Origin: Streptomyces mangrovi
GTDB taxonomy: Bacteria > Actinomycetota > Actinomycetes > Streptomycetales > Streptomycetaceae
Direction: 5' to 3'
NCBI RefSeq assembly: GCF_900114215.1
Contig: NZ_FOSG01000004.1
Location: 355,493 to 419,492, forward strand
DNA length: 64,000 nucleotides
The translations under genes were made by a program, and so were the position numbers. Of this stretch, positions 17,044 to 52,675 are shown piece by piece. The notes beneath the pieces were generated by a model. The model saw only the letters and a program-made list of their open reading frames with translations, made no database searches and was not told the origin of the DNA. Each line of letters starts with the position of its first letter. Positions within the stretch are counted from its first letter, which is position 1.

Positions 17044-17994
17044 TCAAGCCCCGCTCGCCGCTCGCCCGCAAGCTGTCTTCCGGCGACTCCTCAGGAGAGC
17101 GGTTTCGTAGTCGTGGAGGGTGCGACCGGCCACCCACCCCTGAGACCGGGCCCTGGAGACGTCCAGGACCACGGAGTGTGCCAGCTGGTCGACGGCGTAG
17201 CGGGTGAGCGGCGGTTCCGCGTGCGGGCGCAGCCGGGCCAGCGTCTGGGCGGCGCCCGCCACGGCCCGGGCCACCGGCAGCGGGATATGGCCGATGCGCG
17301 CCCGTACGCCGTGGGCGCGCAGGACCGTCCGTATCGCCTCGTTCCGTTCGTACGGCGCCGGGTCGGCGATGTTGTACGCGCCCGCCGGCCAGCCGGCGGC
17401 CATGAGGCAGGCGTCGGCGAGGTTCTCGGCGGCGGTCAGACTCAGCCGCACGTCGGGTCCCGGCAGCAGGAGCAGGCCACGGCGGACGCGGGACAGCAGC
17501 CGGGGCACCAGGTGCGGGTCCCCGGCTCCGTAGACCGCCCGCGGCCGCAGCACCACGGCGCCCGCGGCCAGCGCCAGCGCCTCGCCGGCGGCCTTGGTGC
17601 GGCCGTACGCGTTCAGGTGCCCGCGTACCGGATGGTCCTCGGTGATGCCGGCGCGCCCGGACCCGGGCGCGTAGACGCTGGCGCTGCTCACCCACACCAC
17701 CGGCCGGCCGGCGGCCCCCTCCAGCAACCGCGCCGTGCCGTCGACGTTGACGGCGTGCATGGCGGCCTCGGCCGGGGAGCCGGGCACCGGGTCGCCGACG
17801 GCCGCCGCGCAGTGCACGACCAGGTCGGCGCCGGACAGGTCCGGCACCTCGCGCGCGGCGTCCCAGGGGATGTGCCGGCCGACCGGGCCGGGGCGCCGCC
17901 CGACGCACAGGACGTCGGCGCCCCGGGCGGCGGCCGCGGTGGCGACGTGCGAGCCGCAGAAGCCGCTCGCGCCGGTGACGGCGATCGTGGTCAT
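17044..17994 (-). CDS. NAD(P)-dependent extended SDR reductase (OleD-like)
   Basis: A 316-residue extended short-chain dehydrogenase. The nucleotide-binding motif is TGASGFCGSH, the catalytic Tyr and Lys are in AYGRTKAAGEAL, and the RPRAVYGAGDP segment is typical of 3-beta-HSD/epimerase relatives. In Ole pathways such an enzyme (OleD) reduces a 2-alkyl-3-ketoacid made by OleA before OleC closes the beta-lactone. That role is inferred from the operon, which also encodes an OleA-like KASIII and an OleC-like AMP ligase. The ATG overlaps the P450 stop by four bases. It is the last gene of the operon. Confidence 0.85.
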   Translation of the reverse strand: MTTIAVTGASGFCGSHVATAAAARGADVLCVGRRPGPVGRHIPWDAAREVPDLSGADLVVHCAAAVGDPVPGSPAEAAMHAVNVDGTARLLEGAAGRPVVWVSSASVYAPGSGRAGITEDHPVRGHLNAYGRTKAAGEALALAAGAVVLRPRAVYGAGDPHLVPRLLSRVRRGLLLLPGPDVRLSLTAAENLADACLMAAGWPAGAYNIADPAPYERNEAIRTVLRAHGVRARIGHIPLPVARAVAGAAQTLARLRPHAEPPLTRYAVDQLAHSVVLDVSRARSQGWVAGRTLHDYETALLRSRRKTACGRAASGA

Positions 17995-19139
17995 CGGTCC
18001 TCCGGGGATCGACGGGCTTCGGCCGCCCGGACGGCGAGGGAGCGCCAGCCGGGCAGGGCCGCGCCCCGGTCCACACGGGCGCGCTGGACGGTGGGGCGGT
18101 GAGGGGCGAGCGAGGCGAGGGTGTCGTCGAGCTGGGCGCGGGCCAGGCGCGCACCGGGGCAGGTGTGGGGGCCGGTACCGAAGACGAGCCGGGCCAGGGC
18201 GGGCGGGGCCGGGCGGTGGACGTCCGGTGGCTGGTCGTGGGCCCGTGCGGCGTGCCGGGCCACCAGGATCAGACGGTCCCCGGCCCGCACCGGGCAGCCG
18301 TCCAGCTCGGCGTCGGCCGCCGCCACGCGGGGCAGCAGCGGTGAGGGGGCGGTCACCCGCAACAGCTCGCCCACCAGCGTCGGACGCAGCCGGTCGTCGG
18401 CGGCCTGTTCCCACAGCCCCGCGTCGGCGCACCAGGCGGCGGCCCGCGGGAGGGCCGCGACAGTGGTGTTGACGGCGGCGACCGCGAGCATGGCCCGCAG
18501 GGCCGGCTCCGCCGCTTCGCCGTGGGCAGGGGCGAGCAGACCCTCCAGCCGCGCGGCCGCCGCGGCGGCCGCGCGTGCGCTGCCCGGTCTCCGTGGGCCG
18601 GGCAGGTGGTCGCGCACCGCGGCGGCTGCCGCGGCGGACGCCGCCACGGCGATCTCCTCCGGTTCGCCGGTGGTGCGCAGCAGCGCGCGGACGGTGGCGC
18701 CGGCCACTTCGCGGGCCAACGGCACGAGGTCGACGTCGCGGCCCGCCCCGAGCGGGGCGAGCCGACGGGCCAGGACGTCCCGCCACACCGGGCGCAGGCG
18801 CTCCACCCCGGCCGCGCCGAGCTCCTCGGCGAGCGCGCGCCGGCCGGCGCGGTGGCCGGCGCCCTCCTGGTCGAACAGCGTGCCGCCGCAGGACAGTTCG
18901 CGGGCGGCGCCCCCGGTGGTGCCGGCCGCGGTGCGGTCCAGCGGGAGGCGGGTGAGGGCCTGCCGGTAGGGCTCGGTGCCGTGTACCAGTACCGCGCCGC
19001 CGATACGGGTGACCGCGCGGCGGCGGGCGGCGGCGAGGAGGGCGAACAGCACGGGATGGGAGCGGGTGTAGACGCGCCGGTCGCGGCGCCGGGCGGTACG
19101 GAGGGAGGACGCGGTGGGGGTGGCGGGGACCGTGGTCAT
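17991..19139 (-). CDS. Cytochrome P450
   Basis: A 382-residue P450 monooxygenase. The heme-thiolate loop is FGTGPHTCPGARLA (Cys327), and the ExxR motif is Glu258-Arg261 (GELLR). In the I-helix the usual acidic residue before the oxygen-activating threonine is replaced by asparagine (AVNTTVA, Asn224). This is uncommon and could alter proton delivery or favour peroxygenase-like chemistry. Ferredoxin and reductase partners are not adjacent. The ATG and the stop both overlap neighbouring operon genes by four bases. A role in hydroxylating or tailoring the long-chain product of the operon is inferred. Confidence 0.88.
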   Translation of the reverse strand: MTTVPATPTASSLRTARRRDRRVYTRSHPVLFALLAAARRRAVTRIGGAVLVHGTEPYRQALTRLPLDRTAAGTTGGAARELSCGGTLFDQEGAGHRAGRRALAEELGAAGVERLRPVWRDVLARRLAPLGAGRDVDLVPLAREVAGATVRALLRTTGEPEEIAVAASAAAAAAVRDHLPGPRRPGSARAAAAAAARLEGLLAPAHGEAAEPALRAMLAVAAVNTTVAALPRAAAWCADAGLWEQAADDRLRPTLVGELLRVTAPSPLLPRVAAADAELDGCPVRAGDRLILVARHAARAHDQPPDVHRPAPPALARLVFGTGPHTCPGARLARAQLDDTLASLAPHRPTVQRARVDRGAALPGWRSLAVRAAEARRSPEDR

Positions 19140-19381
19140 CCGGCGTGCACCTGCTTCGGGTCGGCGGGGCGGCAGCGGTGGTCCCGGCGCCACAGGGGCG
19201 TCCGGCGGGCGCCCCGGGCCCGTGGCCGGCGCGGGCTGCTGTGCACCACCATTCGCTCGGACCGGGCGATCCGGTCGCTGCGCTCGCGCGCCCGTCCGAG
19301 GAGGACGACCTCCTCGGACGGCCCCTCCAGCGGGGTGCGGGAGCGCCCCCACAGCGCGGGCGTGCTGCCGGGCGCGGTCAT
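19136..19381 (-). CDS. 81-residue basic protein embedded in the Ole-like operon
   Basis: A short frame whose ATG overlaps the AMP-ligase stop by four bases and whose stop overlaps the P450 start by four bases. This exact telescoping, matching all other junctions in the operon, is the main evidence that it is translated. The product is arginine-rich (about 20%), with an EEVVLLGRARERSDRIARSE helical stretch and no cysteines except one near the C-terminus. There is no signal peptide or known domain. I do not recognise it; it could be an adaptor, a small RNA-binding-like protein or a translational bridge. Confidence 0.6.
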   Translation of the reverse strand: MTAPGSTPALWGRSRTPLEGPSEEVVLLGRARERSDRIARSERMVVHSSPRRPRARGARRTPLWRRDHRCRPADPKQVHAG

Positions 19382-20853
19382 GGCCGCCTCCGTGCCGCGA
19401 GGCTCCGGGCGGCGAGCCGTGCGGTGGCGGCGCGGTCGGGCTTCAGGGAGCGGCCGGACAGCGGGATGCCGGCGAAGAGCACCGCGTCCGGCCGGGCGGA
19501 ACCCATGCGCTCCAGCGGTCCGTCCAGAGCCGCCCGCAGCGTGTCGTGGTCCGCCCCGGCGTCCGGCTGGACGACGGCGACCAGACGCTCGTCGCCGTCA
19601 CCGGCCGGCACGCCCACGAGCAGGGCGAGTTCGACGCCCGGTACGTGCAGCGCCGGCTCGTACAGCCCCGGGTAGATGTTCTCCGCGCCCCGCAGGACCA
19701 TGTCCTTGCGCCGGCCCTCCAGCACGATCCTGCCGCCGTCGAGACGTGCCCGGTCGCCGGTGGCGACCCAGGGGTCCGGCTCCCCGCCCAGGTAGCGGTC
19801 CCGGGCGGCGGGGCCGGACAGCAGCAGCTCCCCGGAGGCGTCGGTCCTGGCCGCCACTCCGGGAAGCGGGGCGCCGACCAGGTCCCCCTCACCGGTGAAG
19901 CCGGCCTTGTCGGCCTGTTCGACCGCCGCGGCGGGGAACAGTTCGGTCAGCGCGTAGACGCCCCACGCCTCCGTAGCCCCCGCGCGCTTGACGCGGGTGA
20001 GCAGCCCGGCGCTCGCGGGAGCCGATCCGGTCCACACCCGCCCGGTGAACCGGCCGCCCTCCGCGAGCAGCCGCCTTGTCTGCGGCGGCGTCAGATAGAT
20101 GGCCTGCGGGGCGAGACGGCGCAGCTGACGGGAGAGCACGCGCGCGGAACGGGCGGGCAGCGCGACCGGTGCTCCGCTCGCCAGGGACGGCACGAGGACG
20201 AAGAAGGTCCCGCCGAGAACGGGCCGCCCGGCCTCGGGCCGGACCAGCTCGGCCACCGCAGTCATGCCGGCGGCGAGCGAGGAACGGGTGTGCACCACCG
20301 CGCGGGGCCGGGAGGTGGTGCCCGAGGTGAACACGATGACCGCGTCGCCGTCACCGTCCACCGGGGGCGGCAACGCGGTCCGCACTCCGGTGTCCAGGGC
20401 GGGGGCGCAGCCGGGCAGCCGTGGCCCGACGGTGGCCACCGGTCCCAGCTCCGCGAGGTCCGGCAGGGCCAGGTGGGCCCGGCGGGCGAGCGGCCGGGCC
20501 CAGCCGGCGACCGCCTGGGCGGCGGCGTCGGCCAGGACGATGTCGGGACGGGCCAGGGCGAGACGGGCGCGCAGCACGTCCGGCCCGGCTCCCGGGTCGA
20601 GCACCGCGGCCCGGGCGCCGAGGCGGTGCACGGCGAGCATCACGGCCAGAGCCCGGGGCCCCGGCCGTACGGCGACGCCGACGGTGCCGCCGCGTGCGAC
20701 GCCCCGCGCGTGCAGGGCGGCGGCGCAGCGGTCGGCGAGGTCGGCCAGGTCTCCGCACGTGACCCCGGTGCGTACGGCGCCGCTGCGGGTGGTGCCGAGG
20801 ACGGCGGGCCGGCCGGGGTGGCGCCGCAGGGCGCCGGCGAGAGCGTCGAGCAT
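19378..20853 (-). CDS. AMP-dependent ligase / beta-lactone synthetase-like (OleC-like)
   Basis: A 491-residue ANL-superfamily enzyme. Core motifs are present: the phosphate loop FTSGTTSRPRAVVHT, YALTELFP, TGDRARLDGGRIVLEGRRKD, and a C-terminal lysine in SGRSLKPDRAA. ANL enzymes activate carboxylates as adenylates; OleC relatives activate the carboxyl of a beta-hydroxyacid, which then closes to a beta-lactone. The neighbouring OleA-like and OleD-like genes favour that role over ordinary acyl-CoA synthesis, but the two cannot be separated by reading alone. The ATG overlaps the glycosyltransferase TGA by one base. Confidence 0.85.
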   Translation of the reverse strand: MLDALAGALRRHPGRPAVLGTTRSGAVRTGVTCGDLADLADRCAAALHARGVARGGTVGVAVRPGPRALAVMLAVHRLGARAAVLDPGAGPDVLRARLALARPDIVLADAAAQAVAGWARPLARRAHLALPDLAELGPVATVGPRLPGCAPALDTGVRTALPPPVDGDGDAVIVFTSGTTSRPRAVVHTRSSLAAGMTAVAELVRPEAGRPVLGGTFFVLVPSLASGAPVALPARSARVLSRQLRRLAPQAIYLTPPQTRRLLAEGGRFTGRVWTGSAPASAGLLTRVKRAGATEAWGVYALTELFPAAAVEQADKAGFTGEGDLVGAPLPGVAARTDASGELLLSGPAARDRYLGGEPDPWVATGDRARLDGGRIVLEGRRKDMVLRGAENIYPGLYEPALHVPGVELALLVGVPAGDGDERLVAVVQPDAGADHDTLRAALDGPLERMGSARPDAVLFAGIPLSGRSLKPDRAATARLAARSLAARRRP

Positions 20854-21593
20854 CAGCGCGGGTCCTCCCCGTGACGGCCCGGGCCCTTGTCGAGGTACCA
20901 GCGGGCGGTGCCGACGAGGCCGTAGGCGCGCAGCCGGCGGGTGGAGTTCTCCACGACCATGTCGCGGGCGTGGACGATGGCGGTGGTGCGGCGGCGCACC
21001 CGGTTGAGGAAGAGCCGGTCGGTGGGGGAGGGGCGGCGCGGCATCCCGCCGACCGCCTCGTACAGCGCGGCGGTGATGGCCATGTTGTTGCCCGCGTGCA
21101 TCCGGTAGGGGGCGAGATAGCCGTGGCGGCGGCGGTGGGCCGGGCGGACGCGGCCGAAGAGGGCGGCGACGCGGACCAGCACACGGAAGACGGCCCGCCC
21201 CAGCGGTCCGTGCTCGTCGCGGCGTGCGTCGACGCGTCCGCACACCAGGCCCGCGCCGCACCGCAGGGCGCCGCGGGCGCCCGCCGTCCAGCCGGGCCGC
21301 GGCAGGCAGTCGGCGTCGGTGCGGGCCAGCAGCGTGGCGCCGTGTCCGATCGCGTACCGGAAGCCGGTGTCCACCGCGCAGCCCACGCCCTTCTCCGGCT
21401 CGCCGATGACGTGTACCGGAAAGGGGGCCCGGCGGGCGAAGTCGCGGGCGAGGGCCGCGGTGTTGTCGGTGGAGGCGTTGTCCACGACGACGAGGGTGAA
21501 GTCGCGGTCGCGCTGGGCCGCGAGCGCCTCCAGGGTGGCGCCGATGCGTGCGGCCTCCTGGTGCGCGGGCACGATCACCCACAGGACGCTCAT
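20853..21593 (-). CDS. Family 2 glycosyltransferase
   Basis: A 246-residue GT-A fold glycosyltransferase. The N-terminal strand WVIVPAHQEAARIGATLEAL, the VVVDNASTDNTAAL nucleotide-sugar segment and the DTDADCLPRPGW-like DxD region (TDADC) are typical of GT2. No membrane helices are evident, so it is probably soluble or peripheral. It starts four bases before the KASIII stop and ends against the AMP-ligase start. Its presence suggests that the operon product, or an acceptor used with it, is glycosylated; donor and acceptor are unknown. Confidence 0.85.
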   Translation of the reverse strand: MSVLWVIVPAHQEAARIGATLEALAAQRDRDFTLVVVDNASTDNTAALARDFARRAPFPVHVIGEPEKGVGCAVDTGFRYAIGHGATLLARTDADCLPRPGWTAGARGALRCGAGLVCGRVDARRDEHGPLGRAVFRVLVRVAALFGRVRPAHRRRHGYLAPYRMHAGNNMAITAALYEAVGGMPRRPSPTDRLFLNRVRRRTTAIVHARDMVVENSTRRLRAYGLVGTARWYLDKGPGRHGEDPR

Positions 21594-22621
21594 GCCTTCT
21601 CCCAGACCATCGTCATGATGCTGACGCCGCCGCCCAGGCCCACGAACAGGACCCGGTCGCCAGGACGCAGATGCTCGTGGACGCGGTCGAGCTGCACGCC
21701 GAGGGTGGCGCTCGCCATGTTGCCGAGTTCGGGGACCGTGACGACGAGCCGGTCCCGGGGGACGCCGGTGAGCTCCACGAACCGCTCCAGGTACGGCACG
21801 GTGACCTGATGCACCAGGATGTGCCGGAAGTCCTCCCACGCCAGTGAGGTGCGCTGCCGCATCCGGTCGAGCACCGATGTGCCGACCTTCTCGAAGACCT
21901 CGCGCAGCTCGCCGCCGTCCCCGCGGAAGTAGGTGTGCTCGTCCCCGCGGGGGTGGCGCGAACCGCCGCCGAAGATGCCGCCGACCGACCAGTGCTCGGA
22001 GTGCGTCTCGGTGTCCACGTCGAGGATGCCGCCCCGGTCCACGGCCTCCAGGACGACCGCGGCCCCCGCGTCGCCGAAGGTGTAGCCCGCGAAGCCGTCC
22101 CGGAGCTGGCCGGAGTCGGAGGGGGCGTGCCGCACGGCACGGCTGGGGGTCTCCCCGGTGACGACCAGGGCGCGGCGGGCACGGCCGGCGAGGATCATCG
22201 CCCGTGCCGTGTCGATGCCGTTGACGAAGCTGTTGCACGCGTTCGTCACGTCCAGCGCGTGCGCCCGCGAACCCAGCTCGGCCTGGACGATGTGCGCGGT
22301 CGCCGGTTCGGCCACGTCCCGCGTGGCGGAGGCGAACACCAGCAGGTCCACGTCGTACGGAGCGAGTCCGGCCCGGCCCAGCGCCGTACGCGCCGCCCGT
22401 ACCGCGAGCGTCGAGGCGTACTCGTCCTCCGCGGCCGCCCGGCGCGAGGCGATGCCGGTGGTCCGTTCGAGCATGCGCGCCGGCAGGGACAGCCCGGAGG
22501 CCGTGGCGAGGCGTTCCTGCAGCTGCCGTGAGGTCACTTCGAGCTCCGGCAGGCAGGAGGCCACCGCGGTGATGCCCGCCCGGCGGCGCACCGGCTCGGG
22601 AGCAGCATGGTCTATGTGCAT
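21590..22621 (-). CDS. KASIII-family thiolase (OleA/FabH-like)
   Basis: A 343-residue condensing enzyme. The catalytic triad of the FabH/OleA group is visible: Cys129 in DVTNACNSFVNG, His271 in LVHQVTVPYLERF and Asn301 in ELGNMASAT. The TNAC context resembles OleA, which joins two acyl-CoAs head to head by a Claisen condensation, more than FabH, but that choice is inference. It is the first gene of a six-gene operon in which every junction overlaps. The 285-base upstream gap carries a possible operator and strong inverted repeats. Confidence 0.85.
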   Translation of the reverse strand: MHIDHAAPEPVRRRAGITAVASCLPELEVTSRQLQERLATASGLSLPARMLERTTGIASRRAAAEDEYASTLAVRAARTALGRAGLAPYDVDLLVFASATRDVAEPATAHIVQAELGSRAHALDVTNACNSFVNGIDTARAMILAGRARRALVVTGETPSRAVRHAPSDSGQLRDGFAGYTFGDAGAAVVLEAVDRGGILDVDTETHSEHWSVGGIFGGGSRHPRGDEHTYFRGDGGELREVFEKVGTSVLDRMRQRTSLAWEDFRHILVHQVTVPYLERFVELTGVPRDRLVVTVPELGNMASATLGVQLDRVHEHLRPGDRVLFVGLGGGVSIMTMVWEKA

Positions 22622-43790: not shown

Positions 43791-44768
43791 TCACCCGGAG
43801 CGGGGAAGGTCGGTGACACCGCTTGTGATGCTTTCGGGGTGCCAGAGCCGGGACGCCATGGCCAGCGCGCACACGCCACTGACCAGCAGATCCGTCACCA
43901 GGCAGACGGCGCGGCTGGCCACCGCCACGGCTGTGGCCGCGGTGACGGGCAGCACCTGGGAGAGTGTTCCGATCAGGACCAGCTCCCGGATCAGGGCGCC
44001 GTCGGGCAGCACCACGACGACCGAGCTGATCCCCGTGGCCAGCGCGAACGCTCCGACGCTGATCACCAGAGACCGCCCCATGGGCGCACCCATGGGGAGC
44101 GTGAGCAGCCACAGATGGAGGCCGGAGACCAGACGGCAGGCAAGCTGCCAACCGATGGCCGCGCGGATCTGCCGTCCCGAGCCGGATGCGGTCAGTTTCC
44201 GGCGCAGCAGGCGGGCGGCCGCCTGTGCGGCCCGTCCCACCAGCGACGGCCGCGCCAGCACGAAGGCCAGCGACGCGGCCGGGAGCAGCAGCAGCCAGCT
44301 CCAGGCGCCGAACACCTGGGGCGCGGCCAGGCTGCCGACGACCATACCGGTCAGCAGCACGACCGGGATGTTGAGCAGCGAGACAGCGACGGTGACCAGC
44401 GTTCCGACACCGACGCTCTGGGCGAGCCGCGCATGGGTGAGAGCCACCCAGAGCCCCCCTGGCGCGTACTTGGCGCTCATTCCGACGAAGTAGACACCGG
44501 CGGCGGTGCGGCGAGGCAGGACGTGTCCCAGATCGGCGAGGATGCCGCGCCAGGACATCATGGCGCACAGCAGGGCCGCCACATTGACCACGCAGGAGAT
44601 CAACAGAAAGGGCAGTGCCCGGGAGGTCATCATGGGGCGTGTGGCCGACCAGTCCTGTTCACGGAGGGTCAGTACGAGCCCGACGGCGATGACGCAGGCC
44701 AGCGCCCAGCCGGCCAGCAGCCGCCAGCGAGGCCGCCAGCGCCGTCGGCGGCGGCCGGTGTCATCCAC
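43791..44768 (-). CDS. LPG synthase / flippase-like (AglD/UPF0104) membrane protein
   Basis: A 325-residue polytopic membrane protein with about 8 helices: LLAGWALACVIAVGLVLTL, LPFLLISCVVNVAALLC, VSLLNIPVVLLTGMVVGSL, WSWLLLLPAASLAFVLA, SLVISVGAFALATGISSVVVVLP and others. The GMSAKYAPGGLW and LPDGALIREL segments match the lysylphosphatidylglycerol synthase TM / AglD-like family. Such proteins often accompany glycosyltransferases and are thought to translocate or transfer lipid-linked groups. Its start overlaps the upstream GT4 stop by eight bases. It is the last gene of the cluster. Confidence 0.8.
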   Translation of the reverse strand: MDDTGRRRRRWRPRWRLLAGWALACVIAVGLVLTLREQDWSATRPMMTSRALPFLLISCVVNVAALLCAMMSWRGILADLGHVLPRRTAAGVYFVGMSAKYAPGGLWVALTHARLAQSVGVGTLVTVAVSLLNIPVVLLTGMVVGSLAAPQVFGAWSWLLLLPAASLAFVLARPSLVGRAAQAAARLLRRKLTASGSGRQIRAAIGWQLACRLVSGLHLWLLTLPMGAPMGRSLVISVGAFALATGISSVVVVLPDGALIRELVLIGTLSQVLPVTAATAVAVASRAVCLVTDLLVSGVCALAMASRLWHPESITSGVTDLPRSG

Positions 44769-46152
44769 GGCTGGACTTCCGGCGCGTCAGGCTCTCGTAC
44801 AGGCCGAGAGTGCGGGTGACGGTGCCCGGCCAGCGGAAGTTCCGGCGGGCGTGGGTCCGGCCACGGGCGGCCAGCCGTGCGGCCGCGGCGGGGTCGTCCA
44901 GCAGCCGGCAGATGAGGGCGGCCAGCTCGTCGGGGGTGTCACCGCTCATCCGCAGCGCCGCTGGACCGCCGTCGTCCTCGCCGTCGGAGATCAGCGCAGA
45001 GAAGCCGGAGCCGAGCACCACCGGGGCTGCCAGGGCCATCGCCTCGACCGAGACCAGCCCGAACGGCTCATAGCGGGAGGGGAAGACGCAGGCGTCGGCG
45101 GCGAGATAGTGGCGTCGCACGTCCTCCTGGGGCAGATAACGGTGGTAGACGTGCGTCCGGTCCCCGATGCCGAGCTCGGTGACCAGCCGGTCCACCGCCG
45201 TGCCCTGGTCCGTGCCGGCGAGGCCGACGCCGAGCATCACCAAGTGAACTCCGGGATGGCGGCGGGCGACTGCGGGCAGGGCGTGGAGCAGCGTGGGCAC
45301 GCCTTTGACCGGGCTGAGCCGGCCGGCGAAGACCAGCAACGGGGTGTCGGGGGGAAGCCCGAGTTCCGCGCGGAGCCCGCTTCGCGCTCGCTCCCGCTCG
45401 CGGGCGAGCTTCGCGTCGTCGGGGTCCCGGCCGGCCGGGGTGTCGGTGGTCTCGCAGCCGTGCGGGATGACGCTGATGCGGTCCGCCCGCCAGCCGTGCG
45501 CGACGACCAGTCGCCTCAGCTCCGGGGTGGGCACGACGGTTTGGGCCGCGACTTTGGCGAGCAGCCGCTGGTTGATTTCGATCAGCCGGAAGGGATCGGT
45601 CATATCGGGCTGCTCGACCATCGTCATCTCGGTGTTGTGAACGTGGTAGACCACGGGCAGCCGTAGCACGGTGGCCGCGAGGATTCCGGCCGGGGCACTC
45701 TGCCAGTCGTGCACGGCCACCACCGTGCCCGACCGGCGGGCTCGCACGAGCGCGGGCAGTGTCGCCAGATTGAAGGCGAGCAGGGAGAGCGCGAACAGGG
45801 CCCGGCCGCTGAGCGCCAGATGGTTCTTCGGTGCCACGATGCGCCGCTTGAGCCGGCTCGGCAGCCAGGGCCGCCGGATCGTCACGGAGCCATGCCGCTC
45901 CCGGCGGGGGAGGTTCGCCGGGCAGTTCAGGGTGTACAGCGTCAGTGACACGTCGTCGCGCTCCCGTTGGACGCACTGGACGAACCGCTGCGCGTACTCC
46001 GCCAGACCGCCCAGGGCCCAGGGCGGGTACTGGTGACAGACCACTACCACCCGCCGCAGCGGGGAGCGTGGTGGGGCGGTGCCGGGGGCCGGGCTCAGGC
46101 GACTCAAGTGGACCATCCTCTCTTTGCAGCCCTGTAGGCGCCGATCCGCCAT
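44761..46152 (-). CDS. Family 4 glycosyltransferase
   Basis: A retaining GT-B glycosyltransferase of about 463 residues. The acceptor-side VVVCHQYPPWALGGLAEYAQRFV, the linker IPHGCETTD, and the nucleotide-sugar site VFPSRYEPFGLVSVEAMALAAPVV (an E-x7-E pattern) are typical of GT4. VFAGRLSPVKGVPTLLHALP is also conserved. The start is uncertain: in-frame ATGs at 46215, 46152 and 46116 all precede the conserved core; none has a strong ribosome site. Donor and acceptor are unknown, but the prenyltransferase and second GT4 in the cluster suggest a lipid-linked glycan. Confidence 0.87.
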   Translation of the reverse strand: MADRRLQGCKERMVHLSRLSPAPGTAPPRSPLRRVVVVCHQYPPWALGGLAEYAQRFVQCVQRERDDVSLTLYTLNCPANLPRRERHGSVTIRRPWLPSRLKRRIVAPKNHLALSGRALFALSLLAFNLATLPALVRARRSGTVVAVHDWQSAPAGILAATVLRLPVVYHVHNTEMTMVEQPDMTDPFRLIEINQRLLAKVAAQTVVPTPELRRLVVAHGWRADRISVIPHGCETTDTPAGRDPDDAKLARERERARSGLRAELGLPPDTPLLVFAGRLSPVKGVPTLLHALPAVARRHPGVHLVMLGVGLAGTDQGTAVDRLVTELGIGDRTHVYHRYLPQEDVRRHYLAADACVFPSRYEPFGLVSVEAMALAAPVVLGSGFSALISDGEDDGGPAALRMSGDTPDELAALICRLLDDPAAAARLAARGRTHARRNFRWPGTVTRTLGLYESLTRRKSSRG

Positions 46153-46268
46153 ACGGTTCTCGGGTCGCGCTGAAGGATTCGGGCATACGTGCAGGCACGG
46201 ACTCGAGGCGTGCATCGGCTGCGCGGTTGTGGCAGTGGGGGCGGAGACGGTGTTTTCCTAAGTCGTAC

Positions 46269-47327
46269 TCACAGAAATCGGCTGACGGTCAGAACGATCA
46301 GCCACAGAATGCCGTTGATCATGAACGGTGCGTCCGTGAGTACGTCATGGCCCGGCTCTTCACTGCCGCGGTGCAGCGCTATCAATTGCAGATAGCGGCA
46401 CAGGGCGAAGATGGCGAGGGGCATGGTGACGACGGCCAGCACGGCAGCGTGTGGATGCGGTGCGGAGAGGACGAACAGTTCATAACTGATCAGCGTGACC
46501 GCCAGCAGCAGGACCATCAGCTGGTCGAGCAAGGAGACCGAGTACCCCGTGAGAGCAGGCCGCTGCGTAGCCGCCCGCTCCTGGATGTCCGCGGTGACGA
46601 GTTCGTGGCGTCGCTTGCCGAGCGCCATCAACAGGCAGGCACAGTACACGGATATGATCAGAGGAGGGCTGAAAGGCGCCGACACCACCAGGCAGCCCGC
46701 CAGCGCCCGAAGGGCGAAGCCGATTGCTATCACGCTGACGTCGACCAGCGGGAAGTGCTTCAACGCCAGGCAGTAGGCCAGATTGAGCATCACGTATGCA
46801 GCGGTGACAGCCTGCACTGCCGGCGGCAGCAGTGCGCCACAGGCTGCCAGTGTCGTCAGACAGCCCGCGCCCAGGAGCAGCGCGCCGAGTGGGCCGATCT
46901 GCCCGCTGGCCAACGGCCGATGGCGTTTGACCGGATGCAGCCGGTCCTGCTTGCGGTCGAGCCAGTCGTTGAGGACGTAGACCGCGGCGGAGGCCGCCGT
47001 GAACGTGGCGAAGGTGGCGAGTCCCCACGCGATGTGGTGCAGGAGCGCCGCGGGGGCCACGGCCAGCGGAATGATGAGGACGAAGACGTTCTTCACCCAC
47101 TGGCGAGGGCGCAGCAGCACCAGTGCCGCCGGCAGCCGGGAAGGCCGGGGAGTGGTGCGTGACGTGCCCTCCCGGAGGGAGCCGTGCGAGCCGCTCGTCG
47201 CGCGGGCCGGTTCCGAGGGAGCCGTCGCCGACGCTGCCGGGGGTGCGGACGCCCCAGGACCGGGCGGTGCGGCCGCGGCCGGGCCGCCCTGGTCGTCCAC
47301 GGTGTCTCCGCCGCCCAGCCGCTTCAC
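46269..47327 (-). CDS. UbiA-family prenyltransferase (decaprenyl-phosphate phosphoribosyltransferase-like)
   Basis: A 352-residue intramembrane enzyme. After a ~70-residue Pro/Ala/Ser-rich leader come LRPRQWVKNVFVLIIPLA and the first aspartate motif NDWLDRKQDRLHPVKRHRPLASG, then about eight further hydrophobic helices and a LPDV-like second region KHFPLVDVSVIAIGFALRALAG. The RPRQWVKN start is characteristic of decaprenyl-phosphate 5-phosphoribosyltransferases (DprP/UbiA of mycobacteria), which join polyprenyl phosphate to PRPP. The GTG overlaps the upstream GT4 stop by four bases. A polyprenyl-linked pentose is the inferred product. Confidence 0.82.
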   Translation of the reverse strand: MKRLGGGDTVDDQGGPAAAAPPGPGASAPPAASATAPSEPARATSGSHGSLREGTSRTTPRPSRLPAALVLLRPRQWVKNVFVLIIPLAVAPAALLHHIAWGLATFATFTAASAAVYVLNDWLDRKQDRLHPVKRHRPLASGQIGPLGALLLGAGCLTTLAACGALLPPAVQAVTAAYVMLNLAYCLALKHFPLVDVSVIAIGFALRALAGCLVVSAPFSPPLIISVYCACLLMALGKRRHELVTADIQERAATQRPALTGYSVSLLDQLMVLLLAVTLISYELFVLSAPHPHAAVLAVVTMPLAIFALCRYLQLIALHRGSEEPGHDVLTDAPFMINGILWLIVLTVSRFL

Positions 47328-48460
47328 GGCCGACTGCCGCTCAGGAGCTTCCGGAACGCCTCTTCGTGCGCGTCGAGGAACGCCTCCCCACCGAAGAGCT
47401 TCGTCGCTGCTTCGCGCCCCGCCCCGCGGTCCTCGGCAGGCAGTTCGGCCATCTCCAGGAGCGCCGCACGCAACGCCCCCGGGTCCCTGGGCGGGACCAG
47501 CCGCCCGAAGCCCGTGGCCTCGATGGGGTAGCGGGAACCGGGCAGTTCCGTGCTCACCGGCGGGATTCCGGCCATCATCGCCTCGACCTGGACGATGCCG
47601 AAGGACTCCGATATCGAGGGCAGTGCGAAGACGTCGATCGAGGCGTAGAAGTCCCGTACCGCGTCACCGCGCAGCAGGCCCGTGAAGCGGATCCGCTGGT
47701 CGTCGCCGGCCTCCCGGCGGAGCTGCGCGATGTTGCTGCCACCCGCCACGGTCGCGTAGTCCCCCGCGATCAGCAGTCGTGCCCGGGGGTCGTCGATGGC
47801 GCGGAAGGCCCGTATGAGGTATTCGATGCCCTTGTCCACGGTGATCCGGCCCATGAAGCCGATGTGCAGCCCGTCCCCGTCGCGCAGCCGGGGCGTGCCA
47901 CCGTTGCGGTCCACGCACGGTGAGGAGACGGGCAGCAGCCGGCGGCGCCTGATCGTCGGCCAGATACGGGACCCACGTGCCTGGTCCTCGCTGTTCGTGA
48001 TGACCAGGTCCGCCTTCCGTACGGCCGCCTTGCACGACTGGTCGACGGCCCACATCCCAAAGCGGTTGACGGGGCTGTCGGGCAGGAAGACGTCGATGTG
48101 GTAGGTCACGACCAGCCGTGCGCTGCGCTTGAACGCGGCGACGAAGGCAGCCTCGGGGTTGGGCAGATGCATGTGGACGATGTCCGAGCGTGCCGCCAGA
48201 CGCCTGGCCAGTAAAGGAAGTTGAGGGCTGATGAAGCCCCTGCTGATCCGGGCGAGTACCGGAGCCCTGAAGACGTGGACACCGTTGAGGACTTCCTGAC
48301 GGGCGAGTGCGGGATCGTGCTGGGCGCAGACCACCGCGACCTTCCAGCCACGGCCGGCGAGCCCCTCGGCGGTCAGCCGCGCAGCCTCCGTCAGACCACT
48401 GACATACGGGCTGTAGTAGTCGAGCATCACCGTCACGTCGAACGTGTCAGGTTGCAGCAC
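47324..48460 (-). CDS. Family 4 glycosyltransferase
   Basis: A 378-residue GT-B enzyme. Features are an N-terminal VTVMLDYYSPYVSGLTEAARLTAEGLAGRG, IVHMHLPNPEA, GFMGRITVDKGIEYLIRAFRAI and a nucleotide-sugar site FALPSISESFGIVQVEAMMAGIPPV with the E-x7-E pattern. It is co-translated with the UbiA-family gene (four-base GTGA overlap) and follows the EEP gene after 37 bases. It probably adds a sugar to the same lipid-linked intermediate handled by the second GT4. Confidence 0.88.
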   Translation of the reverse strand: MLQPDTFDVTVMLDYYSPYVSGLTEAARLTAEGLAGRGWKVAVVCAQHDPALARQEVLNGVHVFRAPVLARISRGFISPQLPLLARRLAARSDIVHMHLPNPEAAFVAAFKRSARLVVTYHIDVFLPDSPVNRFGMWAVDQSCKAAVRKADLVITNSEDQARGSRIWPTIRRRRLLPVSSPCVDRNGGTPRLRDGDGLHIGFMGRITVDKGIEYLIRAFRAIDDPRARLLIAGDYATVAGGSNIAQLRREAGDDQRIRFTGLLRGDAVRDFYASIDVFALPSISESFGIVQVEAMMAGIPPVSTELPGSRYPIEATGFGRLVPPRDPGALRAALLEMAELPAEDRGAGREAATKLFGGEAFLDAHEEAFRKLLSGSRP

Positions 48461-48497
48461 GGTGCTTCCCTTCCTGTGTCTGACCTGGTGTCGCGAT

Positions 48498-49715
48498 TCA
48501 CGAAAAGACCTGGTCCGGGACGACTACGCGGATCTTTTGGGCCGAATGGTCGGAGAGGGCCTCGCCGCCGCGGAGGTGGTAGCCGGAGACCGCCAGGTCC
48601 TCAGTGGTGAAAAGCCAGTCGAAACGCCACAGTTGGGGCAGTGCGCGCCACGACCGGGGTAGTGAGCAGGAGCCCTCGCAGGCAGGCCAGGAGAGGGCGG
48701 GAAACAGGGAGCCACTCGGGTTGTGGGGCCGAGTACCGGCTCCGAGTGAGTAGAGATTCATCCAGGCCGCGTTGAAGTCGCCGGCCACCACGGCCGGGTG
48801 GGGGTTCCTGCCCAGATCCGCGCGCAGTTTGCGGTATTCCCTGATCCACCAGTCCCCTTGTTCCCTACCGGCCTGGTAGAAACGGTCCAGCCCGTAGCGG
48901 ATGTCGCAGGGCCGGAAGCGAATCGGCAGGTGCACGTTGTAGAAGGAGACCGTGCGTCGGCCCACTCGAATATCAGTGCGCTGAGCCTTCGCCCCCTTCC
49001 AGTACCAGTCATCACCCGTGGCGGGAACCTGCTGATTGGGCGCTGCGACGACCGGCAACCGGGACAGAGTGAGCAACTCGCCCTGCACGAGCAGCCGGTA
49101 GCCGGGAAACTCCGCACGCAGCCGGGCCGAGTCGTCGATGCGGACAGGACTTGTGCACTTCTTCTGCTCGTCCCTGTTCGAGTAGTTCCAGTTGAGGTAT
49201 TCATGGAGGAGATACACGTCGGCATCCTGGCGGCGCAGAAAGGCGTAGAAGGCCTCCTTGTCGTCGGACGCCATCTGCCAGTAGTCCGTGGACCAGGCGA
49301 AGACCTTGACCTCCGTGCCCCGGGAGCTGCCCGCGGTGGTGCCCGTCCATCCGAAGTCGGCCACGTACGCCCCGGCCAGCAACAGGAGCACCAGGACCGC
49401 GGAGAGCCGGCGGCGCACCGGCGTCGCGAACGGAACGAGTACGAGCAGCAGCACAGGCACCACCACCACGGTCAGCGGCGGGGTGGTCTCGACGATCAGC
49501 CATGGCCACCAGCGGCCGATGAGTAGGACGTGGAGGGCGAGGAGGACCGTCCAGACCGCCGTGCTCGCCACCAGCAGTCGCGTTCCCCAGCACCAGCGGC
49601 GGGCGGCCGGTGCCTCTTCCGGTGCGTCCGGTGCCTGTCCCGGTGCGTCCCGGCCGGTGTCCTCCTCGGCCGGGGGTGTGGACGAGTCGCCGCCCGGTGC
49701 GTCCGTGGCGGCCAT
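48498..49715 (-). CDS. Membrane-anchored endonuclease/exonuclease/phosphatase (EEP) family hydrolase
   Basis: A 405-residue protein. Residues ~45-125 contain three hydrophobic helices (LLVASTAVWTVLLALHVLLI, TVVVVPVLLLVLVPFA, LSAVLVLLLLAGAYVADF), after which the EEP domain should face outward. Its catalytic landmarks are visible: Glu in YLLHEYLNW, SFYNVHLPIRF, AGDFNAAWMN and a terminal LSDHSAQ. EEP enzymes are Mg-dependent phosphodiesterases or phosphatases; in a lipid-glycan cluster it could remove a phosphate or cleave a phosphodiester. The start overlaps the epimerase TGA by one base. Confidence 0.85.
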   Translation of the reverse strand: MAATDAPGGDSSTPPAEEDTGRDAPGQAPDAPEEAPAARRWCWGTRLLVASTAVWTVLLALHVLLIGRWWPWLIVETTPPLTVVVVPVLLLVLVPFATPVRRRLSAVLVLLLLAGAYVADFGWTGTTAGSSRGTEVKVFAWSTDYWQMASDDKEAFYAFLRRQDADVYLLHEYLNWNYSNRDEQKKCTSPVRIDDSARLRAEFPGYRLLVQGELLTLSRLPVVAAPNQQVPATGDDWYWKGAKAQRTDIRVGRRTVSFYNVHLPIRFRPCDIRYGLDRFYQAGREQGDWWIREYRKLRADLGRNPHPAVVAGDFNAAWMNLYSLGAGTRPHNPSGSLFPALSWPACEGSCSLPRSWRALPQLWRFDWLFTTEDLAVSGYHLRGGEALSDHSAQKIRVVVPDQVFS

Positions 49716-50812
49716 CAGAAGAACACCTTCGCGAGTCCCAGCACGCCCTGCCGCCACGGGTCCCGGCTGGTCCGTCCGCCGCCCTTGCCCGCCGGGACGC
49801 CTGCCGCCGTTGCACGCTGTGTGCGCCACCAGTCGTACGTCTGGAGGATGGCGTCCTGGTTGGACAACCGGGGGCGGAAGCCGAGTTTCTCCCGGGCCTT
49901 GTCGACGCTGACGTAGGAGTCGGCGAGCAGCTTGGACACCAGCCTGCCGTACACGGGGGACAGCTTCGTCCGTTCCAGTCCGCGCAGCACCGCCACCGCG
50001 GGTCCGCCGGGCATCGACACCACATGCCTGCCGTGCCCCGCGGCGTCCAGCACGCACTGGAAGTCCTCCCGCAGAGTGCCGAATTCGGCGGCGCCGATGT
50101 TGTACGTGTCGCAGGCCACCTCGTCCGGGGCGCGCAGCACCTCCAGCACCGCATCCACGAGATCGTCCAGTCCCAGCATCTGGATGCGCACATCGCCCTT
50201 GCCGAGCACGGGAAAGTTCCTGCCCTCCTCGGCCCATTGGAAGAGCATGTCGAACAGCCCCATTCTTCCGGGACCCAGGAAGGTCTTGGGCCGCAGTACC
50301 GGCAGGCACATACCTCCCGCCCGGAACCGCTCGACGACCTTCTCCGCCTCCGCCTTCGCGGAGCTGTAGGGATCCACCGGCTCAAGCGCGTGGTCCTCGG
50401 GTGTGGGTACCAGCCGGGGCAGTCCGTAGACGGCGGTCGAGGAGATGTGCAGCACTCTGGGCACGGCCGCGGCGCGGGCCGCTTCCAGCACGGTGGTGGT
50501 GCCTTCGACGACGATCGATCTGATGTCCGCCACGGGGTAGCTGGGCAGCGCGGAGGCGCAGTGCACCACGGCGTCGGCGCCTTCGAAGGCTTCGGCCAGG
50601 GCGTCCGCGTCACGTATGTCCCCGGTGAACGGCTTCAGCCCGGGTCTCGTGGGCACCGGTGCCAGATCGAAGGCGCGGACCTGGCTGTCCGCCGCCAGCA
50701 GGCGGTTCACCAGGTGTGTGCCGAGTACGCCGGCGGCACCGGTGACGGCGACATGGCCCGGGAGAGCAGCCCGGCCCGGGGACGGCAGCCCGTGCGGCGC
50801 GTCGGTCACCAC
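49715..50812 (-). CDS. NAD-dependent sugar epimerase/dehydratase (extended SDR)
   Basis: A 365-residue extended SDR. The dinucleotide motif is VTGAAGVLGTHLVNRLL, the catalytic residues are in HISSTAVYG and DPYSSAKAEAEKVV (YxxxK), and the RPKTFLGPGRMG segment follows. Such enzymes epimerise, dehydrate or reduce nucleotide sugars. It is coupled to the preceding aminotransferase: the GTG at 50809 overlaps its stop by four bases, and a GTG at 50812 is equally possible. Together with the aminotransferase it could make an amino-sugar or related precursor. Confidence 0.87.
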   Translation of the reverse strand: MVTDAPHGLPSPGRAALPGHVAVTGAAGVLGTHLVNRLLAADSQVRAFDLAPVPTRPGLKPFTGDIRDADALAEAFEGADAVVHCASALPSYPVADIRSIVVEGTTTVLEAARAAAVPRVLHISSTAVYGLPRLVPTPEDHALEPVDPYSSAKAEAEKVVERFRAGGMCLPVLRPKTFLGPGRMGLFDMLFQWAEEGRNFPVLGKGDVRIQMLGLDDLVDAVLEVLRAPDEVACDTYNIGAAEFGTLREDFQCVLDAAGHGRHVVSMPGGPAVAVLRGLERTKLSPVYGRLVSKLLADSYVSVDKAREKLGFRPRLSNQDAILQTYDWWRTQRATAAGVPAGKGGGRTSRDPWRQGVLGLAKVFF

Positions 50813-52233
50813 GAGCTCACCCGTTCCCGTATGAAGCGGCCGAGCAGCCGGTTCATGCCCTCGGCAAGGGTGGCCTCCAGGGCGCCGAGGAAGTGTTCGG
50901 CCTCTTCGGGGCCCGCTACCAGCGGCGGGCTCACGACCAGCGGACTGCGACCGTTGAGGGTGTTGTAGGTGTAGACGTCGTGCTTGCGGTACAGCGTGTC
51001 GATGACCGCCGCAGTGATGATCTTCGTGCGGATCAGCGGGTCCTTGGCCAGGTCTCCGGCCGGCAGCTTGCCGATGAGGTCCAGCACCTTGGGCCCGCCG
51101 GAGAGGAACACCCCGTAGAGCGCGCCGGAGCCGCGCACATCGGCGATCAGGTCGGGATGGGTCTTCCGGATGCGCTCAAGACCTGGCCGCAGCACCGCTT
51201 CCAGGGCGCGGGCCCGCCCCGGATAGTCGTCCTCGACAGCCACGCAGACGGCCTCGACGGCCGTCGCGGTCTCCTCGCCGAAGCCGTAGTACGTCGTGGA
51301 CGTGCTCTGCATCATCGCGTCGCCCATGTTGTCGTACGCCTTGCGGAAGACCGGCTCACGCGCCACGTAGGCGGAAATGGAGGACTTGCCGCCGCCGAAC
51401 GACTTCGAGGTCGTCACCACGTCGGGCACGAGGCCCTCGTACCGGGTGAAGTAGAACATGCTGCCGGTCTTACCCCACCCGGTGTAGATCTCGTCGAATA
51501 TCAGCACGATGTCCTCGGCCGTGCACAATTCACGGAGTTCACGCAGGAATTCCTCGGAGCACCAGCGCATGGTCGACGCGCTGAACGGCTCAATGAGGAG
51601 TGCGTACACCTCGCTGCGGCCCCGCGCGTCCCTGTTTTCCGCGAGAACCCGCCGAACCGAGTCGATGTCGTCGTACTCGAAGGTGCCGATGCCGGGAATG
51701 GTGGGGAACTCGAAATGGTTCTGCGCCCCGCCGGTGAGCCCGCCGGAGCCGAGGAGTTTGCCGTGGAAGCTGCTGTCCGCCCGCAGGATCCGGTTCCGTC
51801 GGCCACCGTGGTACTTGTACGCCAGTTTGACCGCGCCCTCGACCGCCTCCGCCCCGGAATTCGGCAGGAACGAACGGTTCAGATCACCGGGCAGGACCGC
51901 TGCCAGATTATTGCCCAGGGCGGCGAGATACGGCGAGAAGTAGGTCTTGTGAACCTCCATGCGCCGCTGTTCCTGGAAGCGCCGACGCGCTGCGAGAATG
52001 CGCGGATGGTTGTGCCCGTGGTTGAGTACGCCGACTCCGCCGGTGAAATCCAGAATCTTACGGCCGTCACGCGTGTAGATGTAAGAGCCCTCGGCATGGT
52101 CGACAAGCTCCCGGCCGAAGCCGAAGGAGGTCATCAGCCGGACCTGGCTCTTGTTGATATACGTGCGGTAGAGTTCGTGTACTTCCTCGACGTCCAGCTT
52201 CTCGGCCTCTTCCAGGCTGACGAGATGCGCCAT
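50806..52233 (-). CDS. Class III PLP-dependent aminotransferase
   Basis: A 475-residue aminotransferase. The GGVGVLNHGHNHPRIL, SFLPNSGAEAVEGAVKLAYKY, IFDEIYTGWGKTG and VTTSKSFGGGKSSISAYV segments give the PLP pocket, with the Schiff-base lysine in TTSKSFGGG. Class III members usually act on omega-amino or acetylated acceptors but also on sugars and sphingoid or hopanoid-type chains. As the first gene of the seven-gene cluster it probably supplies the amino group of the product; the natural substrate is unknown. An A+T-richer upstream stretch may hold the promoter. Confidence 0.88.
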   Translation of the reverse strand: MAHLVSLEEAEKLDVEEVHELYRTYINKSQVRLMTSFGFGRELVDHAEGSYIYTRDGRKILDFTGGVGVLNHGHNHPRILAARRRFQEQRRMEVHKTYFSPYLAALGNNLAAVLPGDLNRSFLPNSGAEAVEGAVKLAYKYHGGRRNRILRADSSFHGKLLGSGGLTGGAQNHFEFPTIPGIGTFEYDDIDSVRRVLAENRDARGRSEVYALLIEPFSASTMRWCSEEFLRELRELCTAEDIVLIFDEIYTGWGKTGSMFYFTRYEGLVPDVVTTSKSFGGGKSSISAYVAREPVFRKAYDNMGDAMMQSTSTTYYGFGEETATAVEAVCVAVEDDYPGRARALEAVLRPGLERIRKTHPDLIADVRGSGALYGVFLSGGPKVLDLIGKLPAGDLAKDPLIRTKIITAAVIDTLYRKHDVYTYNTLNGRSPLVVSPPLVAGPEEAEHFLGALEATLAEGMNRLLGRFIRERVSSW

Positions 52234-52675
52234 GGGCCCTTCCGATCGACGTTTTTGGGTGCTCCGACATCTATGGCAAGGATTCGTGTCCCGCTGTCAC
52301 TGCGGTCCTCGTCCGCGAGATCCGGACCGGGCGCGCCACCTCGTTCGACGGGCCGGGAATCCGCGGAGGCCGGCTGTCCCGGCCACCGTCCGTCCCCGCC
52401 CGTGGCCGCCACTCTCACCGCCGTGTCTTCCGGACGGCTTCAGAGAGTTACGGCCTCGGGCATCAAGGACTCTCCCGTGTACCTGTGGTTGGACGTGCCC
52501 CCGCTCCCGTGTCCCTCGGGCCCGAGGGGGATGCGTGACCGGGCGCCCCGCAGAGAGGGCTCTTGCCGTGCCTGGAGGCGTGCGGCTCGGCCCCCCTTCG
52601 TGGACCACCTCAGTAGAGCACAGGGCCGCTGTCAGAAATCTCGCAGTTAACGTCAGGGATATGCCAGTGACGCCG
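52234..52675. other. Intergenic stretch between SARP gene and aminotransferase
   Basis: No gene seen. It should contain the aminotransferase cluster promoter, perhaps a SARP target, but I could not recognise the usual pair of direct heptamer repeats. A perfect 16-base palindrome CCCTCGGG-CCCGAGGG lies at 52513-52528. A TTGCCATAGATG stretch on the minus strand about 40 bases before the start could be part of a promoter. Confidence 0.4.

What the first reader, a model, noticed from the sequence alone, without database searches (positions are those of the whole stretch)
17044..22621. Six-gene Ole-like (olefin/beta-lactone) operon with P450 and glycosyltransferase but no OleB
One minus-strand operon encodes an OleA-like KASIII (Cys129/His271/Asn301), a GT2 glycosyltransferase, an OleC-like ANL ligase, an 81-residue protein, a P450 and an OleD-like reductase; every junction overlaps by 1 or 4 bases. 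OleA, OleC and OleD are the enzymes that join two acyl chains, reduce the ketone and close a beta-lactone; OleB, which decarboxylates the lactone to an olefin, is missing. A beta-lactone end product, as in lipstatin- or nocardiolactone-type pathways, hydroxylated and perhaps glycosylated, is the inference. I know of no characterised pathway with this gene set.
Basis: partly seen in the sequence, partly recalled or inferred. Interest (0 to 1): 0.75.

Follow-up and report, generated by a model that had tools for sequence, protein, structure and literature searches.

The report
Glycosylated fatty beta-lactone operon in Streptomyces
This Streptomyces operon, whose five main genes keep their order in 64 of 80 related loci from several actinomycete genera, likely makes a sugar-bearing lipid, probably a beta-lactone, as was already proposed in print in 2020 for an Actinoplanes gene region with the same gene set; its sixth gene, the small one, is the leftover end of a second sugar-transferase gene.

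Summary
The operon is real and its coordinates are right. The core, KASIII - GT2 - ANL ligase - P450 - SDR, keeps its order in 64 of 80 related loci; 13 of the 16 others lack genes and stop near a contig end. Three corrections. (1) The "81-residue protein" is no separate protein but what an internal deletion left of a second GT2 gene, full-length in 17 of the 64 complete loci. (2) The KASIII has the Glu-Pro signature of OleA and scores nearer OleA than FabH. The ligase is not OleC by sequence: nine of the ten other ANL proteins found in the genome score higher on an OleC profile. The reductase is only weakly OleD-like. (3) Gene set and product idea were published in 2020 for Actinoplanes atraurantiacus (PMC7064751); a KASIII of that species is 68% identical. 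New support for a lactone: in two Micromonospora loci orthologues of this KASIII and P450 sit beside a genuine OleC and an OleD. No OleB-grade protein was found in the genome. No product is known.

The parts
21590..22621 (-). OleA-type KASIII (condensing enzyme), 343 aa; Cys129/His271/Asn301 plus Glu105-Pro106
   Evidence: KASIII Pfam domains; Glu-Pro at the OleA Glu117 place in at least 97% of 81 rows and in 14 of 14 actinobacterial OleA.
20853..21593 (-). First GT2 glycosyltransferase (GTa), 246 aa, DAD motif
   Evidence: PF00535, 77 bits; DAD in 76 of 76 rows kept; fold model of mean pLDDT 84.7 matching GT2 structures.
19378..20853 (-). ANL (AMP-forming) ligase, 491 aa, own subfamily with Arg in place of the P-loop Lys; predicted beta-lactone synthetase
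   Evidence: PF00501, 122 bits; P-loop Arg in 66 of 67 rows, the other a gap; OleC profile 85 bits; tree.
19136..19381 (-). Remnant of a second GT2 gene (GTb): start plus C-terminal end joined by an internal deletion; still an open frame overlapping both neighbours
   Evidence: 91 bits, profile positions 183-252; intact copy in L026; full-length in 17 of 64 complete loci.
17991..19139 (-). Cytochrome P450, 382 aa; haem Cys327, Glu258-x-x-Arg261, Thr225 preceded by Asn224
   Evidence: (PF00067): haem Cys in 61 of 62 rows, Glu258 and Arg261 in 62 of 62, Asn224 in 52 of 62.
17044..17994 (-). Epimerase-type SDR, 316 aa, weakly OleD-like reductase; Tyr130-x-x-x-Lys134
   Evidence: (best NCBIfam models are the two OleD models, far below cut-off); Tyr and Lys in 64 of 64 rows kept.

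Best explanation
This operon, whose core order KASIII - GT2 - ANL ligase - P450 - SDR holds in 64 of 80 related loci, likely makes a hydroxylated, sugar-bearing fatty beta-lactone. The KASIII would join two acyl-CoAs head to head without loss of CO2, using Cys129 for acyl transfer and Glu105 of the partner subunit as base, as in OleA (inferred from motif and profile). [quoted passage not shown] The ANL ligase would adenylate the carboxylate and let the beta-hydroxyl close the lactone; this is the weakest step, because the protein is not OleC by sequence. The P450 would hydroxylate an acyl chain and the GT2 would put one sugar on it (both inferred; donor, site and chain length unknown). With no OleB found in the genome the lactone would be the end product. 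A second GT2, full-length in other strains, is only a remnant here (shown), so this lineage would make a product with one sugar fewer (inferred).
For: Conserved unit: 64 of 80 loci complete and in order; in the flanks of 63 long loci and the window no other gene family comes near that spread. KASIII: Glu-Pro signature in at least 97% of 81 rows and in 14 of 14 OleA, absent in the three FabH-type paralogues of the genome; OleA profile 148 bits against 80-84 for those paralogues and 83-95 for four KASIII of other genomes without Glu-Pro. Swap: in Micromonospora L113 and L120 orthologues of the KASIII (66%) and P450 (62%) stand beside a ligase with 392-397 bits on the OleC profile and an SDR with 228-233 bits on the OleD profile, with no GT2 and no close relative of the window's ligase (27-29%) or SDR (32-34%); in L113 an adenylation and carrier-protein module follows. 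So in that branch the same condensing enzyme and P450 go with genuine lactone-forming genes. No OleB-grade protein found. Known catalytic residues of the five enzymes are conserved, save the ligase P-loop Lys. A KASIII of Actinoplanes atraurantiacus was active in the OleA p-nitrophenyl ester assay (PMC7064751); a database KASIII of that species is 68% identical to the window's, and that the two are one protein is inferred.
Against: The ligase scores 85 bits on the OleC profile; nine of the ten other ANL proteins found in the genome score 102-179. Its place beside OleC has only 87/83 support on a long branch. On NCBI's OleD model the SDR is third in its own genome. By single-sequence search the KASIII matches PqsD (119 bits) and a FabH (115) better than Xanthomonas OleA (103) among solved structures, and Foldseek does not separate them. 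The KASIII tree warns of long branches meeting, and one far outlier of the genome falls on the OleA side. The Actinoplanes protein did not condense any acyl-CoA tested in vitro (the assay ran from C8 to C16); little protein was available (PMC7064751 section 10).
Confidence: 0.5

Rival explanations
1. The product is a glycosylated branched beta-hydroxy fatty acid or an ester or thioester of it, not a lactone. The KASIII and SDR would act as above, but the ANL ligase would be an acyl-CoA or acyl-AMP ligase that feeds a chain in or passes the finished acid on.
For: The ligase is not OleC by sequence, and nine of ten other ANL proteins found in the genome score higher on the OleC profile; its best NCBIfam models are a long-chain-fatty-acid-CoA ligase (88 bits) and MenE (82), with the OleC model at 51; P-loop Lys replaced by Arg, unlike the OleC read out in L113.
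Against: The Micromonospora loci pair the same KASIII and P450 with genuine OleC and OleD; in the tree the ligase is, weakly, nearer OleC than the genome's other ANL proteins.
Confidence: 0.35
2. The KASIII is not a condensing enzyme here but an acyl transferase that puts an acyl group on a sugar or another oxygen, as some KASIII-like tailoring enzymes do (recalled), and the operon makes an acylated glycoside.
For: Best solved-structure hits by sequence are PqsD and FabH proteins; GT2 and P450 are typical tailoring genes; the Actinoplanes relative showed ester hydrolysis but no Claisen product.
Against: The Glu-Pro signature, whose Glu is described as essential for condensation in Xanthomonas OleA (PMC7064751), is kept in at least 97% of 81 rows; the OleA profile prefers the protein to FabH-type paralogues.
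Confidence: 0.1
3. An olefin pathway in which an OleB coded elsewhere decarboxylates the lactone.
For: OleA-type KASIII and a weakly OleD-like SDR are present.
Against: No OleB-grade protein found in the genome: best 48 bits, and 66 bits on a profile on which eight OleB score 380-480. A GT2 and a P450 would be idle.
Confidence: 0.03

Closest known systems
Actinoplanes atraurantiacus oleACD-type region (Smith et al. 2020 mBio, PMC7064751)
   Same: Same domains, listed in the text in the same order: OleA, glycosyltransferase, OleC, P450, OleD, no oleB (section 11); same product proposal (hydroxylated, glycosylated beta-lactone). A KASIII of that species in the database (P0288) is 68% identical to the window's.
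   Different: The window carries the remnant of a second GT2. The ligase and SDR, named there by domain, are tested here against OleC and OleD profiles and do not reach them. I did not fetch the A. atraurantiacus region itself; the syntenic relative seen is Paractinoplanes tereljensis L115.
OleABCD olefin pathway of Actinomycetota (loci L151-L168)
   Same: OleA-type KASIII with Glu-Pro, reductase of the epimerase SDR type, an ANL enzyme.
   Different: No OleB; ligase far from OleC (85 against 622-726 bits); SDR far from OleD (131 against 465-511); GT2 and P450 added.
Lipstatin pathway (LstAB from review PMC12141560, passages read; the other lst genes recalled)
   Same: Non-decarboxylative joining of two acyl-CoAs by KASIII, lactone end product.
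   Different: Lipstatin uses a KASIII heterodimer in which one subunit has Cys/His/Asn and the other an essential Glu; here one protein has all of them. No GT2 or P450 in lipstatin (recalled). The Micromonospora variant L113 is nearer to lipstatin than the window is.
Nocardiolactone pathway (nlt genes recalled; Nocardia brasiliensis oleACD without oleB in PMC7064751)
   Same: OleA, OleC and OleD types without OleB.
   Different: No GT2 or P450 known to me; not compared by sequence here.

Membership tests
OleA (non-decarboxylative KASIII) | Cys-His-Asn triad | tested here: met
   Cys129, His271, Asn301 each at least 97% conserved in 81 rows.
OleA (non-decarboxylative KASIII) | Glu followed by Pro at the place of Xanthomonas Glu117 | tested here: met
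   Glu105-Pro106 aligned to Glu-Pro of 14 of 14 actinobacterial OleA; the three FabH-type paralogues of the genome lack it.
OleA (non-decarboxylative KASIII) | Closer to OleA than to FabH by profile and tree | tested here: met
   148 bits against 80-84; tree puts the family and OleA on one side of a 100/99 branch, with a long-branch warning. Single-sequence search of solved structures does not favour OleA.
OleA (non-decarboxylative KASIII) | Inside the OleA clade proper | tested here: not met
   Sister side, not inside; 14 OleA score 523-603, this family 128-154 on the OleA profile.
OleA (non-decarboxylative KASIII) | Claisen condensation of two acyl-CoAs | not testable with these tools
   The Actinoplanes relative gave no condensation product in the published assay.
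OleC (beta-lactone synthetase) | OleC-grade profile score and place in the OleC clade | tested here: not met
   85 bits against 622-726 for OleC and 75-179 for ten other ANL proteins of the genome; next to OleC at 87/83 only.
OleC (beta-lactone synthetase) | ATP-dependent closure of a beta-lactone without CoA | not testable with these tools
   Needs the enzyme.
OleD (2-alkyl-3-oxoalkanoate reductase) | OleD-grade profile score | tested here: not met
   NCBIfam 81-85 bits against a cut-off of 580; actinobacterial profile 131 against 465-511.
OleD (2-alkyl-3-oxoalkanoate reductase) | Most OleD-like SDR of its genome | tested here: inconclusive
   Third on NCBI's model; first of the eight best places on the actinobacterial profile, 131 to 123.
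OleB (olefin branch) | OleB present | tested here: not met
Actinoplanes-type region with OleA, GT, OleC, P450, OleD | Same domains in the listed order with a homologous KASIII | tested here: met
   Text listing; KASIII of the species 68% identical; syntenic Paractinoplanes tereljensis L115. The A. atraurantiacus DNA was not fetched, and its ligase, GT, P450 and SDR were not compared.

The most novel reading that the evidence does not exclude
The ANL ligase of this operon is a second, separately evolved beta-lactone synthetase: in one branch of the family a genuine OleC and OleD serve the same KASIII and P450, in the other a different ligase and reductase took their place and sugar transfer was added, giving the first glycosylated fatty beta-lactones, with two sugars in strains that keep both GT2 genes and one in strains such as this that lost the second.
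Probability: 0.35. Interest if true: 0.7.

Novelty: new member of a known kind. Interest (0 to 1): 0.42.

Why it matters
The KASIII occurs in 29 of 295 Streptomyces genomes sampled, and the operon keeps its order across genera, yet I found no product for it. Beta-lactones include antibiotic, antitumour and antiobesity compounds (PMC7064751, abstract), among them lipstatin. If the ligase closes a lactone it is a new sequence family for that reaction, which searches built on OleC would miss; if it does not, the published prediction for the Actinoplanes region needs revision. Strains with and without the second GT2 make a ready comparison by mass spectrometry.

Tried and rejected
The 81-residue frame as a small functional protein: rejected, it is the end of a second GT2. 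OleD by NCBI's model: not specific; 245 of 296 genomes of the phylum and 9 of 14 control genomes have matches at E 1e-15 or better. Structure search for the KASIII: does not separate OleA, PqsD and FabH. Structure search for the GT2: nearest are a mannosyltransferase, a fucosyltransferase and UDP-sugar enzymes at TM 0.6-0.7, so no donor can be named. P450 as a haem-less glycosyltransferase activator (best NCBIfam hit TIGR04515, 57 bits against a cut-off of 343): rejected because the haem Cys is kept in 61 of 62 rows. Idea that GTb remnants stay in frame to couple translation to the P450: in L041 and L073 two GTb pieces lie in one frame, and in the window, L043 and L077 the piece lies in an open frame ending over the P450 start. 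But of 48 rows without full GTb (47 loci and the window) 16 have no overlapping P450 start by my mechanical test and 4 only a short frame that does not reach the ligase, and some of the 16 'relay' rows are artefacts; so not claimed. A missing seventh gene: see full report. Literature: eight paper searches, seen as listings, showed no product for this gene set; opened were PMC7064751 (sections 10, 11, 12 and passages), PMC7158056 (outline with abstract, and passages, not used further) and PMC12141560 (passages). Most subscription papers are not held, so this is not proof of absence.
Full report
Observation. The window has six minus-strand open frames at 17044-22621 with overlaps of 4, 1, 4, 4 and 4 bases. 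Pfam gives KASIII, GT2, AMP-binding, nothing for the 81-residue frame, P450 and epimerase-type SDR. The genome behaves as a Streptomyces: the nearest KASIII proteins are from Streptomyces sp. SS8 (95%) and S. barkulensis (97%).

Conservation. A scan of genome contigs with a KASIII alignment found 266 relatives and kept the best 80 loci, from Streptomyces, Kitasatospora, Micromonospora, Actinoplanes and its kin, Actinacidiphila and Yinghuangia. In 64 of 80 the order KASIII - GT2 - ligase - P450 - SDR is complete on one strand. Of the 16 others, 13 lack genes and have under 5,500 bases left after the KASIII; L091 keeps only KASIII and SDR pieces, and L113 and L120 are a variant. In the flanks of 63 loci of at least 15,000 bases plus the window, called with a rough gene finder, the most widespread other families occur in 6-9 loci of Streptomyces alone or mainly of Kitasatospora (4 with 2 Streptomyces); one adenylation family is in 3 Streptomyces and 2 Micromonospora loci; a 7-locus family read from three genera lies antisense over the operon and is an artefact (only families in 5 or more loci were printed). 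So the five genes look like the whole unit. The KASIII is in 29 of 295 Streptomyces genomes sampled.

The sixth frame. In L026 and others a second GT2 gene lies between ligase and P450, about 53% identical to the first. A profile from 19 such proteins (one of them, L046, itself degraded) matches the window's 81-residue frame at 91 bits, E 3e-28, over profile positions 183-252. The frame begins like the second GT2 and then jumps to its C-terminal end, so an internal in-frame deletion made it (reading by eye). Among the 64 complete loci the second GT2 is full-length in 17; it is degraded in L046 and L073 and left as pieces in L041, L043 and L077. In the other 42 I recognised none; the profile was run on the spacers of 30 loci and the window, not on all.

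KASIII. The Cys-His-Asn triad is joined by Glu105-Pro106, aligned with Glu-Pro in 14 of 14 OleA proteins of actinobacterial ole loci. PMC7064751 (discussion read) says that this Glu, 117 in Xanthomonas, is essential for condensation and was followed by Pro in all but two of the OleA proteins aligned there. The OleA profile gives the window protein 148 bits, the three FabH-type paralogues of the genome 80-84, and four KASIII of other genomes without Glu-Pro 83-95; five distant relatives with the Glu-Pro stretch have 101-118. A tree of 53 rows (two rows, own_L004 and own_L008, dropped before it) puts this family, those relatives and OleA on one side against FabH-type proteins, as sister groups, with a warning of long branches and with one far outlier of the genome on the same side. 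Against this, a single-sequence search of solved structures ranks PqsD (119 bits) and a FabH (115) over Xanthomonas OleA (103), and the predicted fold matches all three alike.

Ligase. On a profile of 15 actinobacterial OleC it scores 85 bits; of the ten other ANL proteins that one search found in its genome nine score 102-179 and one 75. In a tree of 38 rows (five rows dropped before it) it stands on a long branch next to OleC with 87/83 support, which is neither shown nor rejected. Its P-loop has Arg where the L113 OleC has Lys; Arg in 66 of 67 rows, the other a gap. NCBI's OleC model gives 51 bits against 88 for a long-chain-fatty-acid-CoA ligase model. The name OleC is thus not earned by sequence.

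Reductase. NCBI's two OleD models are its best NCBIfam hits at 81-85 bits, far under the cut-off of 580. Two other SDRs of the genome score higher on one of them. On a profile of 14 actinobacterial OleD it leads the eight best places of the genome by 131 to 123. So it is weakly OleD-like.

P450 and GT2. Residue counts come from one search, which kept rows by identity, score and length: 81 for KASIII, 76 for the first GT2, 67 for the ligase, 62 for the P450 and 64 for the SDR, out of 81 (80 loci and the window). The haem Cys is kept in 61 of 62 P450 rows and Glu-x-x-Arg in 62 of 62; the residue before the conserved Thr is Asn in 52 of 62. The GT2 has DAD in 76 of 76.

OleB. A genuine OleB finds at best 48 bits in the genome. 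An OleB profile gives at best 66 bits to the open frames at the places fetched, against 380-480 for its eight members.

A natural swap. In Micromonospora musae (L113) and Micromonospora sp. 15K316 (L120), orthologues of this KASIII (66%) and P450 (62%) stand beside a ligase with 392-397 bits on the OleC profile and an SDR with 228-233 on the OleD profile, without GT2. In L113 a protein with adenylation, adenylation C-terminal and carrier domains follows; L120 has a similar frame that I did not scan with Pfam. That resembles a lipstatin-type set (LstAB from PMC12141560, passages; the rest recalled). Since the same condensing enzyme and P450 stand there with lactone-forming genes, I infer that the window's ligase and SDR do the same jobs with other proteins. 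This is the main reason to keep the lactone reading above the rival.

What is in print. PMC7064751 section 11 (read) lists for Actinoplanes atraurantiacus OleA, a glycosyltransferase, OleC, P450 and OleD without oleB, and proposes condensation, reduction, hydroxylation, glycosylation and lactone closure. A KASIII of that species in the protein database (P0288, found) is 68% identical to the window's; that it is the assayed protein is inferred. The published enzyme was active on a p-nitrophenyl ester but, in short supply, did not react with any acyl-CoA tested, the assay ranging from C8 to C16. So the finding is a member of a published, uncharacterised kind. What is added here: the breadth of conservation, the lost second GT2, the failure of the ligase as OleC, and the Micromonospora swap.

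Verdict. OleA-type condensation about 0.75 likely; a beta-lactone as final scaffold about 0.5; a sugar on the product about 0.6, since the first GT2 is conserved with its DAD motif. Interest 0.42.

Noticed in passing
window 44761-55693 (-): A separate cluster: two glycosyltransferases that match GT4-type models, a UbiA protein near decaprenyl-phosphate phosphoribosyltransferase, an epimerase-type SDR, an aminotransferase of the acetylornithine/putrescine type and a large AfsR/SARP-type regulator.
   Followed up: partly
window 49715-50812 (-): This SDR scores higher on NCBI's OleD model (89 bits) than the operon's own SDR (79 bits), a warning about the model's specificity.
   Followed up: yes
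L091 9001-12207: Decayed operon: KASIII and SDR pieces remain, GT2, ligase and P450 are not found.
   Followed up: no
L113 and L120, 9001-16857: Micromonospora variant with KASIII and P450 orthologues next to genuine OleC and OleD; in L113 an adenylation and carrier-protein module was also identified, which looks like a lipstatin-type cluster with a P450.
   Followed up: partly
L031 9060-10918 and L036 2048-4015: More distant relatives (KASIII 41-44%) beside a GT2 and P450-like stretches, in other arrangements.
   Followed up: no
L016, L017, L018, L019: Streptomyces KASIII proteins at 31-38% identity with the same Glu-Pro-Ala-Thr-x-His stretch in other contexts; a further OleA-like branch.
   Followed up: no
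window 18459-18485 (-), P450 residues 219-227: The residue before the conserved I-helix Thr is Asn in 52 of 62 family rows, unusual for a P450 monooxygenase (the usual Asp or Glu is recalled).
   Followed up: partly
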